Below, piece after piece: positions 1 to 44,831 of a DNA stretch of 44,834 nucleotides. Under the pieces are notes generated by a model, which was not told the DNA's origin, ran no database searches, and saw only the letters and a program-made list of their open reading frames with translations. Location of the stretch: assembly GCA_903910555.1 (NCBI GenBank), contig CAIVZZ010000017.1, forward strand, positions 1 to 44,834. Reading direction: 5' to 3'. Within the stretch, counting starts at the first letter, position 1. Each line of letters opens with the position of its first letter. This stretch comes from an uncultured Gemmatimonadota bacterium. Lineage in GTDB: Bacteria > Gemmatimonadota > Gemmatimonadetes > Gemmatimonadales > Gemmatimonadaceae. The translations under genes and the position numbers were made by a program.

Positions 1-138
1 CCGCACTCGAGCCTCGCGGATCAAACGCCGGACGAAGCATACTTCACGCCACTCTCAATTCGGAGAGCGGCCTGACCCCGCCCGTGAATCCACTTATCTC
101 AAGCTGAAAAGCTGTACAGAAAAGCGGAGCCACTTCTG
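1..138. repeat. Left copy of 138-bp terminal inverted repeat, probably vector or adaptor
   Basis: Bases 1-138 are the exact reverse complement of 44694-44831. The outer edge reads CCGCACTCGAG, which is an XhoI site next to what would be part of a NotI site; the right-end copy shows three more bases of the NotI-like stretch. The TonB gene entering from the right stops resembling its family exactly at base 138/139. I infer cloning-vector or adaptor sequence around an environmental insert. I do not recognise the specific vector. A natural terminal repeat of a linear replicon is the less likely alternative. Confidence 0.85.
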
Positions 139-15342: not shown

Positions 15343-15417
15343 GCGGTGCTCCGACTGGAGTGGACTTCACATTCTAGTGCCGAGTGTGGCATCGGGATAG
15401 ACAGCCGAACAGCCTTT

Positions 15418-15516
15418 GCCGCGGGTTTGCGCGGGTACCCGCGGGTCGGCGCCCGCGCGCACGCCGAGGGAAGTGCCATGTGATGTGACCAGCGTCAACC
15501 CGCGAAAACCCGCGGC
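15418..15516. repeat. Long imperfect palindrome in the spacer after the DUF2334 gene
   Basis: The 20-base arms 15418-15437 and 15497-15516 match at 18 of 20 positions. The interior holds repeated CGCGGGT units and a smaller inverted pair (TCGGCG with CGCCGA). It lies in the 185-bp gap between the DUF2334 gene stop and the asparaginase-type gene start, both on the minus strand. It may terminate the upstream operon. No T-run is present, and it is not related in sequence to the GACGGGAC palindromes. Confidence 0.6.
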
Positions 15517-15527
15517 TAAGAAATTTC

Positions 15528-22018: not shown

Positions 22019-22339
22019 ATGAACGATCACGCGCCGCACGCCGATCACGCGCACGAGCATCCGACCTGGAAGCAGTACAAATGGGTCGCGCTCTGGTTGA
22101 CGCTGATCACGGTATTCGAAGTCTGGATTTACTATACGCCGTTCAAAGAGACGCCGTATTACATCCCGCTCCTGCTGGTGTTGTCAGCGACGAAGTTTGC
22201 GATCGTGGTGCTGTTTTATATGCATCTCAAGTACGATCACAAACTGTTCAAGGCGCTGTTTACGGGGCCGCTCATCATTGCGGTTTGCACGCTGCTCGCG
22301 CTGTTTGCGTTGTTCTCGCATCGGGCGATTCCGCAATAG
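22019..22339 (+). CDS. ctaF: Cytochrome c oxidase subunit IV (prokaryotic type)
   Basis: This encodes 106 residues. A His-rich N terminus (NDHAPHADHAHEH) is followed by three hydrophobic helices, the middle one reading SATKFAIVVLFYMHLKYD, the characteristic COX4_pro block. It is a small accessory subunit of caa3 and bo-type oxidases. It is the last gene of the ctaCDEF set. A strong hairpin with a T-run follows 88 bases after its stop. Confidence 0.92.
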   Translation: MNDHAPHADHAHEHPTWKQYKWVALWLTLITVFEVWIYYTPFKETPYYIPLLLVLSATKFAIVVLFYMHLKYDHKLFKALFTGPLIIAVCTLLALFALFSHRAIPQ

Positions 22340-22376
22340 AATCACCACTACCGCCGCCGCTGGTTGTCGGTTTTGA

Positions 22377-22519
22377 CAACAAAGGGGATGCGTTAACGGT
22401 CGTTGATTGACGGGTATTGAACTAACGGCGACGGGACAGTTCGTGTTAAACACGAACTGTCCCGTCGCTTTTTGTTCATTAATCCGCTGCCAACGACTGT
22501 TAACGCATCCCCTTTGTTG
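22377..22519. repeat. Long nested palindrome, copy A of a dispersed family
   Basis: Outer 29-base arms (22377-22405 and 22491-22519) match at 28 positions. They enclose a weaker middle section and a perfect 18-bp inner stem (22428-22445 with 22451-22468, loop TTAAA). Weaker pairing continues about 15 bases beyond each outer arm. The same arms (GCGTTAACGGTCGTT) and core (GCGACGGGACAG) recur at 41348-41515. It occupies the gap between the convergent ctaF and DUF-less membrane protein genes. Confidence 0.85.
22428..22473 (+). terminator. Intrinsic terminator of the ctaCDEF operon, inside palindrome A
   Basis: A perfect 18-bp stem with a 5-base loop is followed directly by TTTTTG. It lies 88 bases downstream of the ctaF stop. 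It is the centre of the larger palindromic element. Confidence 0.8.
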
Positions 22520-22554
22520 CGATTACCCACAACCGCAAAACGCTGTGCGCCGCT

Positions 22555-23052
22555 CTAGCTAGACCCATCCAGCGCATGCGTAAGATTCCCCGCAAACTCC
22601 GGATGCCGCTTGAGCAAATATCCACCCATCAGTGCCGAAGCCACGAGATTCGCCGCTCCAATCTGATACCAGGCAAGCGACCCGAGCACATTGCCGGACG
22701 ATAGCATCAAAGTGAGAAAGTAGAATCCCACTTCGAACACCGCAAAAAAGAGCGCCATCCCCGCCGTGAACTGCGGCGCTTTGCGCGACGCGGTAATCAA
22801 TACGCTGGCGACGCAGCCGAGCGCGACGAACGCCACGATGTGAAACAGGGTGTACGCCACGACAAAATAAGTCAGATCGTGATTTTCAATCCCGCGTCCG
22901 AGGCCGCGCAGCAACGCCCGCCCAAGAAAATCCGGCGTAGAGAACGGCTGTCCGGCAATCATATCCACCGCCAGAAACCAGACCGCAACGCCGGCGGCGC
23001 CGAGCAATCCGGCGGTGATACCATCCCTCAAAGTCTTCGCCTGAATAGCCAT
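22555..23052 (-). CDS. Four-helix membrane protein of unknown function
   Basis: This encodes 165 residues. The ATG at 23052 has a strong AGGAGG six bases upstream, so the longer frame to 23115 is rejected. Four hydrophobic helices are visible: around TAGLLGAAGVAVWFLAVDMI, YTLFHIVAFVALGCVASVLI, GMALFFAVFEVGFYFLTLML and IGAANLVASALMGGYLL. I cannot assign a family. No charged or metal-binding cluster stands out apart from a short DFLGRALLRGLGRGIENHD loop. It is convergent to the oxidase operon and divergent from ctaG across 150 bp, so it may be co-regulated with oxidase assembly, but that is only positional. Confidence 0.75.
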   Translation of the reverse strand: MAIQAKTLRDGITAGLLGAAGVAVWFLAVDMIAGQPFSTPDFLGRALLRGLGRGIENHDLTYFVVAYTLFHIVAFVALGCVASVLITASRKAPQFTAGMALFFAVFEVGFYFLTLMLSSGNVLGSLAWYQIGAANLVASALMGGYLLKRHPEFAGNLTHALDGSS

Positions 23053-23211
23053 CGAACTCCTCCTGCAGGGGGTCGCCAGGACTAACCCAGTAGTAAACCA
23101 GTACTGACCCAGCACCAGCTCGTACCATACCGCGACTCACCGGCGGACGTCATCGCACAAACGGGGGAGCCGGCGGTCCCCTCATGTTCAGAGACCGTTA
23201 GATTGCAGGAG

Positions 23212-32429: not shown

Positions 32430-32462
32430 CGTGTACCAGGCCGCCAAGGTCGAGACAGCGTG

Positions 32463-32578
32463 AACTGTTTTTTGTTGTTCGGTGTTCTGTAAGAGAATCA
32501 GTCCGGGCCGTTGACCGCGTCGACGCACTTCGATGTTCGGACGGAGAACTTTGGTTAACCGACGCACAGAAAACAGTT
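32463..32578. repeat. Long imperfect palindrome between the kinase and M1 peptidase genes
   Basis: AACTGTTTT (32463-32471) pairs with AAAACAGTT (32570-32578). Interrupted inner pairing follows (GTTCGGT with AACCGAC, GTTCT with AGAAC, GTCCG with CGGAC) around a central GCGTCGACGC. It fills most of the 163-bp gap between two minus-strand genes. The sequence does not match the GACGGGAC family. Confidence 0.55.
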
Positions 32579-32592
32579 AACTCGTTTTTGCC

Positions 32593-39005: not shown

Positions 39006-41321
39006 TTACCGCGCTATCGCTCCCCAAATCAGCGGCTCGCTCGCCTTCGACTGCCCGCGATACTGCGGACGGAACCCGTAGAGCACCGCGTGTCCCTTCC
39101 CGACGCTGACATCGACCATCGCGGCTTTGCCGTTGAGCTTCGCGCCGCCGAGCAGCCAGCCTGAGAGCAGCACTTCACCGGTCGCCGGATAAGACGCCAC
39201 AACGGTCGCGCGAGCGGGATCGGTGATCTCGAACGCCGGCCCATTCTCAAACCAGATCGCAGGAACCGGTGCCGTCATCCGCGACGCGAGCGGGCTCGCA
39301 CGATTGATGTCGACCGCGAGAATCGAACCGGGCGCATAGAAATCAGCGTTCCGTACGCCGGCGAGAACATTTTTCACCGGGAGCTTGAGCGTTTCGATCG
39401 CGTAGTTGCTCGCTTCGTTGAACGCGAGCACCGTCCCGCCGTTCTCTACAAAAGCGACGAGCGCAGCAGCGCCTGCTGTGCCGAGACCGCCAACGAGCGA
39501 ATCCGGATACGTATCGCGCAGGCCGCGCGTCATCTGCCCGGCGTTCTGGTCGGGGAGCACGATCACGTCGAACTTCGCGTTGAGATTTCCGGCGCGTATA
39601 TCGCGATCGACAAGCGACGTGAACGGCACGCGGTTCACATCGAACATCCAGCGCGTCCAGCCTTCGTCCATCGGTGCGTTGTAGCTGCGGTAGATGCCGA
39701 CGCGCTTTGCGTTGCGGTCGCTAAGCCCGGCCACCGTGAACTTCGGCTCTTCCATCGGCATGATCGGCGCGGCACTCGAGACTGGCGCCACTGACACACT
39801 CGCGATGTCCACGCCGAACAACAGCGGCAGCGTCTGCGCGGTCACGTCGTACGGACGGATCGGCGGGCCGCCCGGGTACTCATGCAGGTTCGGATACTTC
39901 TGCCGCTCGAGCATCGACTTCGCATAGCCACCCATTGGCTGCGACGTCAGCACCACATACGATCCGCTCGGATACGTCGTGCCGTTCGCAGTGACCGCCA
40001 CCGTGCTGGTCCGCACTTCAACCTGCCCGTGCTGCAGCGTCCAAATAATCCGCTGAACGGCCTGCGTGTCGCGCTGCGTGCGCGGAATGATGAACGCGGC
40101 CGGCACGGTGTCATGCGTCCACGGATGGTCAGCGGCGATCGCACGATCGCCCAGCGCGGCATAACTCTCGAGCCACGCGCGACGATCGCGCGCGGCTTCA
40201 TTCAGCATGGCCCAACTCGCGCTCACCTGATACGCGACGATGTCGCCATACGTCCAGTGCCCACCCGGCCAAAGCGCGGGGAAATTCCAGGTAACTGTTT
40301 TGGCTTCGTAGCCGCGCGCCGCGCCGAGCTGGTTGAACGGAATGTCGATGGGCGTCGCGAGCGCAGCGCTCGCCGTCTCCGTGAGGATGCGCACGCCGCG
40401 ATGATACAGCGAATACTGACGCGCCGGCGACCACTGGTCGTACGCGGCGTTGTACGCAATTCCCGTTTTTCCTTCGGCGATCATTCTCCAGCCGATCGCC
40501 ATTCCCATCGAGTTCGTACCCGCGGTAAGAATCGGGTCGATGTTCGGATCGAGCGGGTCCATGTAAGGCGGAAGAAAAATTCTTCCGGCATTCGAACCCT
40601 GCTGGTGAATGTCGTTGACAATTTGCGGATCCCACGGCGTGTAGAGCGAGTCCACCGTGTAACGCGTTTCGGGCTGCGTGAACGCGTACCAATCACGATT
40701 GTCGTCGTGGCCGGTGTACTTGTGGTAAAGCTCCGGCGGCGATGTGCCCTCGGCTTTCGTGCCGAGCGTTGCACGATACCAGTCGCCGACGATGTCGACG
40801 CCGTCTGGATTCTGCGATGGAACAAGAATGATGATCGTGTTCGCGAGGATCGCTTTCGCTTCGGGCGTGTCGCCGCGGGCGAGCCGGTCCGTGAGCACGA
40901 GCGGCGTGGTGAATCCGCCGGATTCCGTCGAGTGAATCGCGGAGGTGATCAGAATGACGTTCTTGCCGGCGGCGAGCAGTGACTCGAGCTCGTCTTTCCC
41001 GCGCACGAGCGGGTTCATGAGCTTGCGCTGAATCATCTGATAGCGATCGAGATGCTTGAGCGTAGCCGAATCCGAAATGAAGACCGCGAGGAACGGGCGG
41101 CCAAGCGTCGTTTTTCCGAGTGTGTGAACCTGAACGCGCGGGCTCGTTTTCTCGACGGCGCGAAAGTAGTCGGTGATCTGCTTCCACGACGGCAGGTGCC
41201 GGTCGGCGCCCGGCTCGTAGCCGAGGATCGAGGCCGGCGTCGGAACCGGCGACTTCTGTGCGGCGAGCGGGGGGGGGGCGACGAGGGCCAGCGCGAGGCA
41301 GATCAAGTGTGTGCGTTTCAT
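39006..41321 (-). CDS. Secreted M14-family zinc carboxypeptidase
   Basis: This encodes 771 residues from the ATG at 41321, where the signal peptide MKRTHLICLALALVAPPPLA begins. The zinc ligands are His130 and Glu133 (AIHSTESGG) and His239 (DIHQQG). Glu315 in RILTETAS is the likely general base. Large M14 proteins of this group usually carry a C-terminal glutamine-amidotransferase-like fold, matched here by the region FDVIVLPDQNAG and onward. It should remove C-terminal residues from peptides outside the cytoplasm. A run of ten C residues on the coding strand (41269-41278) lies in the signal-peptide codons and is prone to slippage. No clear ribosome site is present. Confidence 0.92.
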   Translation of the reverse strand: MKRTHLICLALALVAPPPLAAQKSPVPTPASILGYEPGADRHLPSWKQITDYFRAVEKTSPRVQVHTLGKTTLGRPFLAVFISDSATLKHLDRYQMIQRKLMNPLVRGKDELESLLAAGKNVILITSAIHSTESGGFTTPLVLTDRLARGDTPEAKAILANTIIILVPSQNPDGVDIVGDWYRATLGTKAEGTSPPELYHKYTGHDDNRDWYAFTQPETRYTVDSLYTPWDPQIVNDIHQQGSNAGRIFLPPYMDPLDPNIDPILTAGTNSMGMAIGWRMIAEGKTGIAYNAAYDQWSPARQYSLYHRGVRILTETASAALATPIDIPFNQLGAARGYEAKTVTWNFPALWPGGHWTYGDIVAYQVSASWAMLNEAARDRRAWLESYAALGDRAIAADHPWTHDTVPAAFIIPRTQRDTQAVQRIIWTLQHGQVEVRTSTVAVTANGTTYPSGSYVVLTSQPMGGYAKSMLERQKYPNLHEYPGGPPIRPYDVTAQTLPLLFGVDIASVSVAPVSSAAPIMPMEEPKFTVAGLSDRNAKRVGIYRSYNAPMDEGWTRWMFDVNRVPFTSLVDRDIRAGNLNAKFDVIVLPDQNAGQMTRGLRDTYPDSLVGGLGTAGAAALVAFVENGGTVLAFNEASNYAIETLKLPVKNVLAGVRNADFYAPGSILAVDINRASPLASRMTAPVPAIWFENGPAFEITDPARATVVASYPATGEVLLSGWLLGGAKLNGKAAMVDVSVGKGHAVLYGFRPQYRGQSKASEPLIWGAIAR
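41269..41278 (-). repeat. Ten-base G/C homopolymer inside the M14 signal-peptide codons
   Basis: Ten consecutive G on the plus strand encode APPP in the carboxypeptidase signal peptide. It is the longest homopolymer I noticed. A one-base change would shift the frame after residue 18 and abolish the protein. Confidence 0.9.
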
Positions 41322-41347
41322 AATTTGAAACTTACGACTGTTTTTGG

Positions 41348-41515
41348 TTTTGAGTAATCGCAACAAAAGGTGTGCGTTAACGGTCGTTAATTTATTGGTA
41401 TTGAACTAACGACGACGGGACAGGTCGGCCCATGCTCGACCTGTCCCGTCGCCGTTAGTTCGAAACCAATGCCCAACGACCGTTAACGCATACCTTTCGT
41501 TGCGAGTACCCAAAA
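41348..41515. repeat. Long nested palindrome, copy B of the dispersed family
   Basis: Outer arms 41361-41389 and 41474-41502 match at 26 of 29 positions. Pairing continues through the middle (ATTGGT and GAACTAACG segments) to a perfect 15-bp inner stem (41413-41427 with 41437-41451). It extends about 13 bases beyond the outer arms. The arms closely match copy A at 22377-22519. It fills the gap between the DUF1501 stop and the M14 start, both minus-strand genes, and has no T-run. Confidence 0.87.
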
Positions 41516-41530
41516 CTGTTGGGCAGTTTG

Positions 41531-42826
41531 TTACTTGGTGACCCCTTGGAAGGTCGGCGTGTACCCCGGCCAGATCTGCACCGGATTCTGCAGCCGGTTC
41601 GCCACGATCTCCGCAAGCACATCGCGGTGATCGATCGTGACCTTCACGTCCTGACCGTCCTGGAGATTCGGCGTCGCGAGCGGAAGGAAATTCTTCGTGA
41701 GAACCTTTCCGCCTGCGATGTGATGGCCCATCACGAACATCGCGCCGCCGCGGCCGTGATCGGTTCCCTGATTGCCGTTCTCGCGAACGTTGCGCCCAAA
41801 CTCGCTCATCGCCACCAGCGTCACGTTGTACGTGCCGTTCCCCTGAAGCACGTCGGCCCAGAATGCGCCGATCGAATTCGAGAAGTCGCTCATCGTGTTG
41901 AACAGCGATCCCGTCAGCGGTCCCTCGGCGACGTGCGTGTCCCAGCCTCCGATATCTATCTGAATCGCCTCGACACCAATCCCCGCCTTGATGAGCGCGG
42001 CGGCCGAACGGAGCCCGGTTCCGAACGAGCTGGTCGGGTACGCTGCGGCATTCGACGGTTTATAACCCGGGAAGTTGATCGCCTTGAGCAGTGACAGGGT
42101 GCTCACGACATCGAGCGCAGCTGCGCGCGCGGGATCTTGATCGAGATAGAACTCGTTCGCGAGCCATGCGCTGCGCGCGGTTTGTGTTGCCGCGCTGCCG
42201 CCAATCGCGAAGGTCGGCGGCGACGGCATCGGAATCGTGAGCGGCGCGCCGTCGAGTGTCAGCGGAAGTCCGTTCGCGATTGCGAGCGCACGGAGCGGTG
42301 CAGCGGGATTGAGCGGCCACGAAGTCGCGAGATGGCGGCCGAGCCATCCGGTAGAAACCGTGTCGTCAGTCGCGGATCCGACCTCGATGAAATGCTGCGC
42401 GTCAAAATGGGAACGCGAACTGAAGGTCAGTCCCGCGCCGTGCACGACGAGCAACTCTCCGCCGAGAAATGCCGGCACCAAGCCGGTCATCGCTTTCGGA
42501 AACATCCAATAGTTGTCGAGCGCGGTGCCCTTGTTCACACTGCCGCTATCGGGCCGCGGAATCGCGAGCGTCGGACGCGCTGTGTAATAGTTGGGATCGG
42601 CAAACGGTGCGCAGAGCGACAGACCGTCCGCACCGCCGCGCATGAAGATGTTCACGATCACATCGCGCGCGCCGTTCGCACTGCTCGCCATCACCACTTT
42701 TGGAACCCATTCCGGCACCGCTCCGGCAAAAACCGCAGCGCCCGCCGCCTTCACGATGAAGTTGCGGCGCGAGAGATCATTGTATTCCTGACAGCCGCAG
42801 TTCGCGTGCTCGTCGTATGCGCTCAT
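41531..42826 (-). CDS. Tat-exported DUF1501 protein
   Basis: This encodes 431 residues. A twin-arginine signal lies at residues 19-40 (SRRNFIVKAAGAAVFAGAVP), after a short leader with two Cys. The body has the DUF1501 pattern related to sulfatase/alkaline phosphatase folds: VNIFMRGGADGLSLCAPFAD, VVHGAGL, RSHFDAQHFIEVG, IGGWDTHV and MSEFGRNVRENGNQGTDHG. The family has no proven activity; its genes nearly always follow DUF1800 genes, and both products are exported. Here the DUF1800 gene ends 42 bases upstream, so the pair is an operon. Confidence 0.94.
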   Translation of the reverse strand: MSAYDEHANCGCQEYNDLSRRNFIVKAAGAAVFAGAVPEWVPKVVMASSANGARDVIVNIFMRGGADGLSLCAPFADPNYYTARPTLAIPRPDSGSVNKGTALDNYWMFPKAMTGLVPAFLGGELLVVHGAGLTFSSRSHFDAQHFIEVGSATDDTVSTGWLGRHLATSWPLNPAAPLRALAIANGLPLTLDGAPLTIPMPSPPTFAIGGSAATQTARSAWLANEFYLDQDPARAAALDVVSTLSLLKAINFPGYKPSNAAAYPTSSFGTGLRSAAALIKAGIGVEAIQIDIGGWDTHVAEGPLTGSLFNTMSDFSNSIGAFWADVLQGNGTYNVTLVAMSEFGRNVRENGNQGTDHGRGGAMFVMGHHIAGGKVLTKNFLPLATPNLQDGQDVKVTIDHRDVLAEIVANRLQNPVQIWPGYTPTFQGVTK

Positions 42827-44395: not shown

Positions 44396-44594
44396 GATGA
44401 TGCGACTCCGTGGTAACGCGGTTGTTAACACATCACAGCGTACTGCATTGAGATGTACACTGACGTACGCACGGTGTAGTCATATCCTGTGTGATGAATG
44501 TCACTTTCTGCGAGTTTATGTCGTGGGAGTGATACCCAACTGCTAACAACTGTCGTGAGTTTTGCGCTCTCGGACCAAGGCTGTGTGTTTGAGG

Positions 44595-44693
44595 CTGACG
44601 GTGGTTGGCTCTGGAAAAAAAGCGACGGGACCGAATCGTGTTTATCACGATCGGTCCCGTCGCCGTTTCATTCCCAAAGCCAAAAACCGTCAG
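44595..44693. repeat. Nested palindrome, divergent copy C, cut by the insert end
   Basis: CTGACGGT...TTGGCT...TGG (from 44595) pairs with the complementary segments ending at 44693, around an inner stem of 18 bp with one bulged A (44622-44640 with 44646-44663, loop TTTAT). The core GCGACGGGAC and the ACGGT-GTTGG segment are shared with copies A and B. It stops at the terminal repeat, so outer arms may be missing. The rest of 44396-44594 is an AT-richer spacer with no gene. Confidence 0.75.
44615..44663 (-). terminator. Intrinsic terminator on the minus strand inside palindrome C
   Basis: Read on the minus strand, the 18-bp stem is followed by seven T residues (A-run 44615-44621 on the plus strand). 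It would end transcription of a gene beyond the insert and insulate the DUF1800 promoter. Confidence 0.72.
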
Positions 44694-44831
44694 CAGAAGT
44701 GGCTCCGCTTTTCTGTACAGCTTTTCAGCTTGAGATAAGTGGATTCACGGGCGGGGTCAGGCCGCTCTCCGAATTGAGAGTGGCGTGAAGTATGCTTCGT
44801 CCGGCGTTTGATCCGCGAGGCTCGAGTGCGG
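44694..44831. repeat. Right copy of 138-bp terminal inverted repeat, probably vector or adaptor
   Basis: This is the exact reverse complement of bases 1-138. It ends with CTCGAG (XhoI) followed by TGCGGCCG, seven of eight bases of a NotI site. The last three bases of the window extend the restriction-site-like stretch. No gene is contained. Confidence 0.85.

What the first reader, a model, noticed from the sequence alone, without database searches (positions are those of the whole stretch)
22377..22519. Dispersed family of long nested palindromes (copies at 22.4, 41.4 and 44.6 kb)
Copies A (22377-22519) and B (41348-41515) share outer arms (GCGTTAACGGTCGTT), a middle segment (TATTGAACTAACG) and a core stem (GACGGGACAG), and each folds onto itself over its whole length. 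Copy C (44595-44693) keeps the core and part of the middle. The inner stem pairs differ between copies (AGTTCGTG, GGTCG, CGAATCGTG) while staying self-complementary, which suggests selection for the hairpin. Only A and C have a T-run. They sit in three different contexts: convergent genes, between co-directional genes, and upstream of a gene. They could be expanded terminators, foldback MITE-like elements or structured RNAs.
Basis: seen in the sequence. Interest (0 to 1): 0.72.

Follow-up and report, generated by a model that had tools for sequence, protein, structure and literature searches.

The report
Palindromes paired with IVP (four-helix) genes
The three palindromes belong to large families of gene-free hairpin repeats whose arms match the arms around copies of a small, widespread bacterial gene of unknown purpose (long known from inserts in ribosomal RNA genes), which suggests that this gene comes with its own population of spreading hairpins that settle at the ends of genes.

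Summary
The palindromes are real. A and B (22.4, 41.4 kb) belong to one dispersed family. C (44.6 kb) shares only the core with them and belongs to another. The genome is a Gemmatimonadota MAG. The unexpected result: one family-A copy (contig C15) carries, inside the core hairpin, a gene for a four-helix-bundle protein (PF05635, 23S rRNA intervening-sequence protein, IVP; Avd-like fold). The genome has 11 IVP genes. All 11 lie between inverted-repeat arms, and each has its own arm family. In an unbiased 775-kb sample, 36 of 48 long palindromes match the arms of an IVP element (0 of 187 random segments do). A second species gives 18 of 38. The gene-free copies covary as hairpins, sit mostly at 3' ends (convergent pairs enriched, odds ratio 5.4), and differ between species at the same site. 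IVP genes are under purifying selection (dN/dS 0.06-0.19). Across the phylum their arms are often inverted 7-8-bp repeats. At three loci the element is inverted between species. Best reading: a REPIN/RAYT-like arrangement with an IVP/Avd-type protein in place of a transposase; the gene-free hairpins are reused as terminators. Mobilisation itself is inferred. No target-site duplication or catalytic partner was found.

The parts
22362..22534 (.). Palindrome A: solo (gene-free) copy of arm family A, between COX4 (22019-22339 +) and a convergent gene (22555-23115 -)
   Evidence: orthologous copy in G012; other species have another palindrome or a plain terminator here
22427..22469 (+). Core hairpin of A, terminator-like with a following T-run
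   Evidence: 20-pair stem followed by TTTTG
41347..41516 (.). Palindrome B: solo copy of arm family A, between two - strand genes (39006-41366 M14 peptidase; 41531-42826 DUF1501)
   Evidence: orthologous copy in G012
44594..44694 (.). Palindrome C: same core, arms of the family around the IVP gene at G000 C4:39662
32458..32583 (.). Degenerate solo copy of 'family 2' (arms of the IVP element next to ychF, G000 C11:21050)
   Evidence: (score 44 against 9.5 +/- 1.8 for shuffles)

Best explanation
The palindromes are gene-free ('solo') members of families of foldback elements. The full-length members consist of two long inverted arms with a PF05635 (IVP/S23, four-helix bundle, Avd-like) gene in the apex. 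SHOWN: every IVP gene of this genome lies between inverted arms; most long palindromes in sampled sequence carry the arms of one or another IVP element; solos are intergenic, concentrated at gene 3' ends, hairpin-conserved, and differ between species at the same site; the IVP protein is under purifying selection; the whole element occurs in either orientation at orthologous loci. INFERRED: solos arose from IVP-bearing elements by loss of the gene; they are copied to new hairpin/terminator sites with help from the cognate IVP protein, which would bind the folded arms as an Avd-like ring (a pentamer, by recall of the solved relatives) and act with host or trans-acting enzymes, since it has no recognisable catalytic site; they survive because the hairpin serves as a (often bidirectional) transcription terminator. 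The system would then work like REPIN/RAYT, with an IVP protein in the place of the RAYT transposase.
For: IVP gene inside the family-A core on C15. 11 PF05635 genes in the genome, all within inverted repeats. Unbiased 775 kb: 48 long palindromes, 36 match the arms of an IVP element; 0 of 187 random segments hit a palindrome; 9 of 11 IVP arm families have solos in this sample. Second genome: 18 of 38 palindromes match its own IVP arms, 8 of 10 IVP elements have solos; five G000 arm families with 27 solos have no copy in the G012 sample. Family 2: the IVP beside ychF has the arms of about 14 solos in G000 and many in G002. Covariation beats all shuffles for paired cells and covariation score in both families. 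Convergent pairs 16/45 against 50/539, OR 5.4, p = 6e-6. Turnover at orthologous 3' sites. IVP dN/dS 0.06-0.19. Element inversion at three loci. Phylum: 39 of 65 IVP loci above the 99th percentile of mismatched flank pairs.
Against: No target-site duplication, no perfect empty site and no transposition event were seen; sites without the palindrome usually hold another palindrome or a plain terminator. IVP has no recognisable catalytic motif, and no rayT or BPP-1 reverse transcriptase homologue was found in about 0.9 Mb (28%) of the genome or at IVP loci, so the enzyme is unknown. About 22% of the sampled G000 palindromes, and half of the G012 ones, match no IVP arm. Orthologous IVPs have different arms in different species, and the ychF IVP of G012, G007, G013 and G016 has no clear arms. 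The inversions come from draft MAGs in which inverted repeats can be mis-joined.
Confidence: 0.6

Rival explanations
1. The palindromes are host terminators that spread by recombination or template switching. IVP genes are separate selfish inserts that home into hairpin loops, so the IVP is a passenger and not the driver.
For: Solos sit at terminator positions. 23S IVS are inserted in rRNA helices (PMC4990558). Arms change faster than the IVP gene at the same locus. One core (GCGACGGGAC) is found in different arms.
Against: IVP genes are under strong purifying selection. All 11 IVP genes have arms, and nearly every one has its own solo family, more than expected if inserts landed at random among hundreds of terminators. 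Ordinary terminators do not form dispersed 110-390-bp families.
Confidence: 0.22
2. Classical MITE-like elements moved by an undetected transposase elsewhere in the genome; the IVP is cargo of the autonomous element.
For: Size, inverted arms, dispersal and intergenic location fit MITEs. Conserved CGAGT ends in family 2 and at ychF-locus IVPs.
Against: No target-site duplication. Arms are symmetric over their whole length rather than having short TIRs. Each arm family has its own IVP and no transposase was seen in any. No rayT hit in the 28% sampled.
Confidence: 0.12
3. Structured RNAs (RNase III substrates or regulators) conserved for RNA function, with IVP as their RNA-binding protein; dispersal is incidental.
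For: Compensatory changes; Avd-like fold; RNase III excises known IVS (PMC4990558).
Against: No Rfam family matched. Positions are not conserved between species, and unrelated arms replace one another at the same site.
Confidence: 0.06

Closest known systems
23S rRNA intervening sequences (IVS) with the S23/IVP ORF (Leptospira, Coxiella; PMC4990558)
   Same: Same protein family; ORF bounded by complementary ends that form a long stem; origin and mobility are an open question there
   Different: Here outside rRNA (no Rfam hit at 20 loci), in up to 11-14 copies per genome, with populations of gene-free copies, much longer arms and heptad-repeat arms
REPIN / RAYT (Pseudomonas, E. coli; PMC3116915, PMC8049555)
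   Same: One conserved, vertically kept gene with arm sequences shared by many dispersed non-coding palindromes in intergenic regions
   Different: Partner is a four-helix bundle (PF05635), not a HUH/Y1 transposase; one long nested palindrome of 110-390 bp, not two REPs; up to 11 partner genes per genome, each with its own family
Avd of diversity-generating retroelements (PDB 4dwl, 8ub7)
   Same: Same fold (TM about 0.8 to the IVP model); PHROG Avd hit 1.6e-7 for one IVP
   Different: No reverse transcriptase or template repeat next to IVP genes
MITE-like bacterial repeats (Correia/NEMIS, ERIC, RU; PMC2229807)
   Same: 100-200-bp dispersed foldback repeats, intergenic
   Different: No target-site duplication seen; no transposase-derived TIR; each family is linked to an IVP gene
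Heptamer direct repeats (TAACTGA in Beggiatoaceae, Cyanobacteria, Bacteroidetes; PMC4679880)
   Same: Intergenic 7-bp repeats of unexplained origin
   Different: Here in inverted pairs flanking IVP genes; that paper does not mention IVP

Membership tests
23S rRNA IVS elements | ORF of the IVP/S23 family | tested here: met
   PF05635 97.7 bits, TIGR02436 95-116 bits
23S rRNA IVS elements | ORF lies between complementary ends forming a stem | tested here: met
   11 of 11 own IVP genes
23S rRNA IVS elements | Inserted in 23S (or 16S) rRNA | tested here: not met
   No Rfam rRNA match at 20 IVP loci
23S rRNA IVS elements | Excised by RNase III | not testable with these tools
   needs an RNA assay
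REPIN/RAYT | RAYT (Y1/HUH) transposase gene in the genome | tested here: inconclusive
   No hit with E. coli rayT in 0.9 Mb of 3.2 Mb
REPIN/RAYT | Two GTAG/CGTC-tagged 20-40-bp REP hairpins | tested here: not met
   Single nested palindromes of 100 bp or more, not paired short hairpins
MITE | Short, non-coding, inverted ends, many copies | tested here: met
MITE | Target-site duplication / clean empty site | tested here: inconclusive
   None found at the A, c2, c8 and family-2 copy2 sites; alleles differ too much
MITE | Shares TIRs with a transposase-encoding element | tested here: not met
   Arms are shared with IVP elements, which encode no transposase
Intrinsic terminator | G+C-rich stem followed by a T-run at gene 3' ends | tested here: inconclusive
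   A met, family 2 has A-run/T-run around the core, B has no T-run; position at 3' ends met
DGR Avd | Avd fold | tested here: met
   AlphaFold model pLDDT 95.6; 4dwl/8ub7 TM about 0.8
DGR Avd | Adjacent RT and template/variable repeats | tested here: not met
   No BPP-1 RT homologue at IVP loci

The most novel reading that the evidence does not exclude
IVP/S23 four-helix-bundle proteins are the drivers of a previously unrecognised, widespread class of bacterial mobile palindromes: elements with no transposase of their own, made of an Avd-like hairpin-binding protein plus inverted heptad-repeat arms, which spread gene-free hairpins into terminator positions. The 23S rRNA intervening sequences would be the special case in which such an element landed in an rRNA helix.
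Probability: 0.35. Interest if true: 0.93.

Novelty: new variant of a known kind. Interest (0 to 1): 0.8.

Why it matters
PF05635 proteins are common in several phyla and their purpose is unknown. The idea that the IVS ORF helps its own mobility dates from 1993 (Ralph and McClelland, as cited in PMC4990558) and has lacked a tractable system. Here the gene comes with countable families of non-coding partners, so the question becomes directly testable. PMC8049555 calls REPINs the only known intragenomic sequence population stably maintained in prokaryotes; this would be a second, with an unrelated partner gene. It also offers an origin for rapidly changing terminators and for intergenic heptamer repeats.

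Tried and rejected
Known RNA family: no Rfam hit in the window or at 20 IVP loci. Single family including C: rejected. rRNA insertion: not met. Defence system: no PADLOC hit for four IVPs. RT partner and RAYT partner: no hit in the sampled sequence. Sequence-level homology of IVP to BPP-1 Avd by hhalign: not significant, though the fold matches. A universal inner motif: GCGACGGGAC is not general outside the genus. TSD search by comparing orthologous sites: nothing clean. Literature: no paper in the library linking IVP genes to dispersed palindromes or heptad repeats was found; subscription journals are mostly not covered.

Full report
Observation. The three palindromes exist. The inverted arms of A reach 22362-22534 and those of B 41347-41516; C is 44594-44694. 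They fold far better than shuffled sequence (z -18.6, -18.5, -12.4). A search of the window's own genome (G000, 3.2 Mb, the window being contig C17) found the family of A and B at six or more further places, each a palindrome of about 140-156 bp.

Organism. Protein relatives of the element's gene are found mainly in Gemmatimonadota MAGs. Two congeneric genomes can be named from matching contig lengths: G012 = PMYN (isolate fen_1231) and G002 = JANYIJ (GL140_2_metabinner_43). That the window belongs to the same phylum is inferred from this.

The key copy. On contig C15 the same arms enclose a 556-bp element with an open reading frame in the place of the apical loop. The protein is PF05635, 23S rRNA intervening-sequence protein (97.7 bits), also TIGR02436 four helix bundle protein. 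The genome has 11 PF05635 genes; the same search rings in none of 14 control genomes. All 11 lie between inverted repeats of 45-177 bp, with different arm sequences. None of the 20 IVP loci tested lies in rRNA.

One arm family per IVP gene. I sampled 775 kb of G000 without regard to the finding and called palindromes de novo. Of 48 with arm score of at least 40, 36 match the arms of one of the 11 IVP elements; two of the other 12 are IVP elements themselves. None of 187 random 100-nt segments hit any palindrome. Nine of the 11 arm families have gene-free copies in this quarter of the genome. Of the other two, the C4 family includes copy C of the window and the C5:145156 family had none in the sample. 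Copies within a family are on average 74-82% alike. As a replicate I took 394 kb of G012: 18 of 38 palindromes match the arms of G012's own IVP elements, and 8 of 10 IVP elements have solos. Five G000 arm families (C3, C18, ychF, C5:83772, C11:43113), with 27 solos in the G000 sample, have none in the G012 sample, while the C15 family has more there. A second family worked out in detail (family 2; arms CGAGTGAACTGTTAACTACTAACTGTTGGTCGG) has about 14 solos in G000 and many in G002; its IVP-bearing member is the IVP beside ychF, a locus kept in about 12 of the 18 genomes of the genus.

Hairpin conservation. On 19 family-A copies from three genomes, 94.5% of pair cells are standard; 52 cells changed on both sides against 25.5 in shuffles, 0/500 reaching it. 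On 22 family-2 copies the figures are 96.6% and 25 against 8.1, 0/500. Sliding the partners by 1-3 columns destroys the signal. Related sequences can exceed such shuffles without structure, so this is support and not proof. Selection for pairing and correction between arms of one palindrome predict the same pattern and are not separated here.

Position. In the curated set, 16 of 23 solos with two called neighbours lie between convergent genes (one of these, at 32.46 kb, is doubtful), 7 between co-directional genes and none between divergent genes, mostly within 50 bp of a stop codon. In the unbiased sample 16 of 45 are convergent against 50 of 539 gene pairs (odds ratio 5.4, p = 6e-6); 6 were called divergent with a crude gene caller. 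At the orthologous position of copy A, downstream of the cox operon, G016, G006, G008, G013 and G007 have a plain terminator, G012 has the A-family palindrome and G002 a palindrome of family-2 type. Three other sites show the same kind of turnover. The core of A itself scores as a terminator.

IVP elements. The gene is under purifying selection: dN/dS 0.06-0.19 over 13 orthologous comparisons (synonymous sites near saturation in most; one further pair saturated). At three loci the element is inverted relative to its flanks between species: C15 (G012 against G000 and G010), C5:145156 (G012 against G000), C25 (G002, G010 and G012 against G000, G007 and G016). It is not inverted at ychF or C19. 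At the C25 locus the arms differ in sequence between species but remain inverted repeats in each, so the two arms change together. These are draft MAGs, so inversions need long-read confirmation.

Generality. PF05635 occurs in 159 of 297 Gemmatimonadota genomes, up to 14 copies. For 65 loci, mostly one per genome, the local score between the left flank and the reversed right flank has median 23, against 11 for mismatched pairs (99th percentile 19.8); 39 exceed that percentile. Local 7-8-bp periodicity is prominent: 80% or more lag identity over 35 nt (any lag, mostly 7 or 8) is seen in 29% of upstream and 21% of downstream flanks, against 0.9% of control segments. In 28 loci from other phyla (Bacteroidota, Planctomycetota, Acidobacteriota and others) 10 exceed the 99th percentile, with arms such as (TAGTGGA)n, (AGGTGCT)n and (CAGCTAT)n. 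The signal is weaker there and absent at many loci.

The protein. A model from 18 relatives is confident (pLDDT 95.6) and matches 2gsc and 2rld (PF05635, function unknown; TM 0.84-0.91) and the Avd subunit of diversity-generating retroelements (TM about 0.8). One IVP matches the PHROG Avd family at 1.6e-7. Avd acts with a reverse transcriptase on a structured RNA; no such enzyme was found near IVP genes or in the sampled sequence, nor a RAYT. These are negative results on part of a genome with single-sequence queries.

Mechanism. Shown: the physical nesting, the family-by-family match between IVP arms and solos, dispersal with turnover, hairpin conservation, 3'-end location and protein conservation. 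Inferred: that solos derive from IVP-bearing elements; that IVP protein recognises its own folded arms; that copying needs it; that termination is why solos are tolerated. The main alternative, IVP as a passenger homing into hairpin loops, fits the nesting and the fast arm turnover but not the one-family-per-gene pattern and the strong purifying selection.

Known or new. The protein and its rRNA-borne IVS elements are known (PMC4990558; PMC11270868 reports IVP in 16S and 23S inserts of CPR bacteria). REPIN/RAYT populations are known (PMC8049555). I found no report of dispersed palindrome populations or inverted heptad arms linked to IVP genes, within an open-access library only.

Noticed in passing
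window 112-138 (-) and 44694-44720 (+): The same 26-27-bp sequence lies about 115 bp from the ends of many contigs of this genome (C21, C17, C12, C8, C19, C18, C3 and others): a high-copy repeat seems to break the assembly, and the window is bounded by it on both sides.
   Followed up: no
window 15414-15520: Another palindrome (CGCGGGTTTGCGCGGGTACCCGCGGG...) not assigned to any IVP arm family.
   Followed up: partly
window 22555-23115: A gene without Pfam or NCBIfam hit sits between copy A and ctaG in G000; a related gene is present at the same place in G007 but absent in G012, G016, G006 and G008.
   Followed up: no
L009/L179/L180/L182 (c2 site): At one orthologous 3' site G000 has an A-family palindrome, G002 and G007 have palindromes sharing a GGGGGAAC...GTTCCCCC core inside different arms, G006 a plain terminator, and G010 about 1.6 kb of other sequence.
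   Followed up: partly
A4 alignment, family-2 copies: Family-2 copies carry two variants of an inner arm block (TGTTCTGT or TTAACCAAGGT) in all four left/right combinations, which looks like orientation marks plus conversion between the arms of single copies.
   Followed up: no
IVP elements at the ychF locus (L016, L194, L101, L102, L106, L108): Arms differ between species, but most begin with CGAGT at both ends, like family-2 solos and some heptad palindromes: a candidate recognition end.
   Followed up: partly
L317 (G000 C6:91215): Same GCGACGGGAC core wrapped in heptad-like arms of yet another family (-145 kcal/mol): arms and core combine as modules.
   Followed up: no
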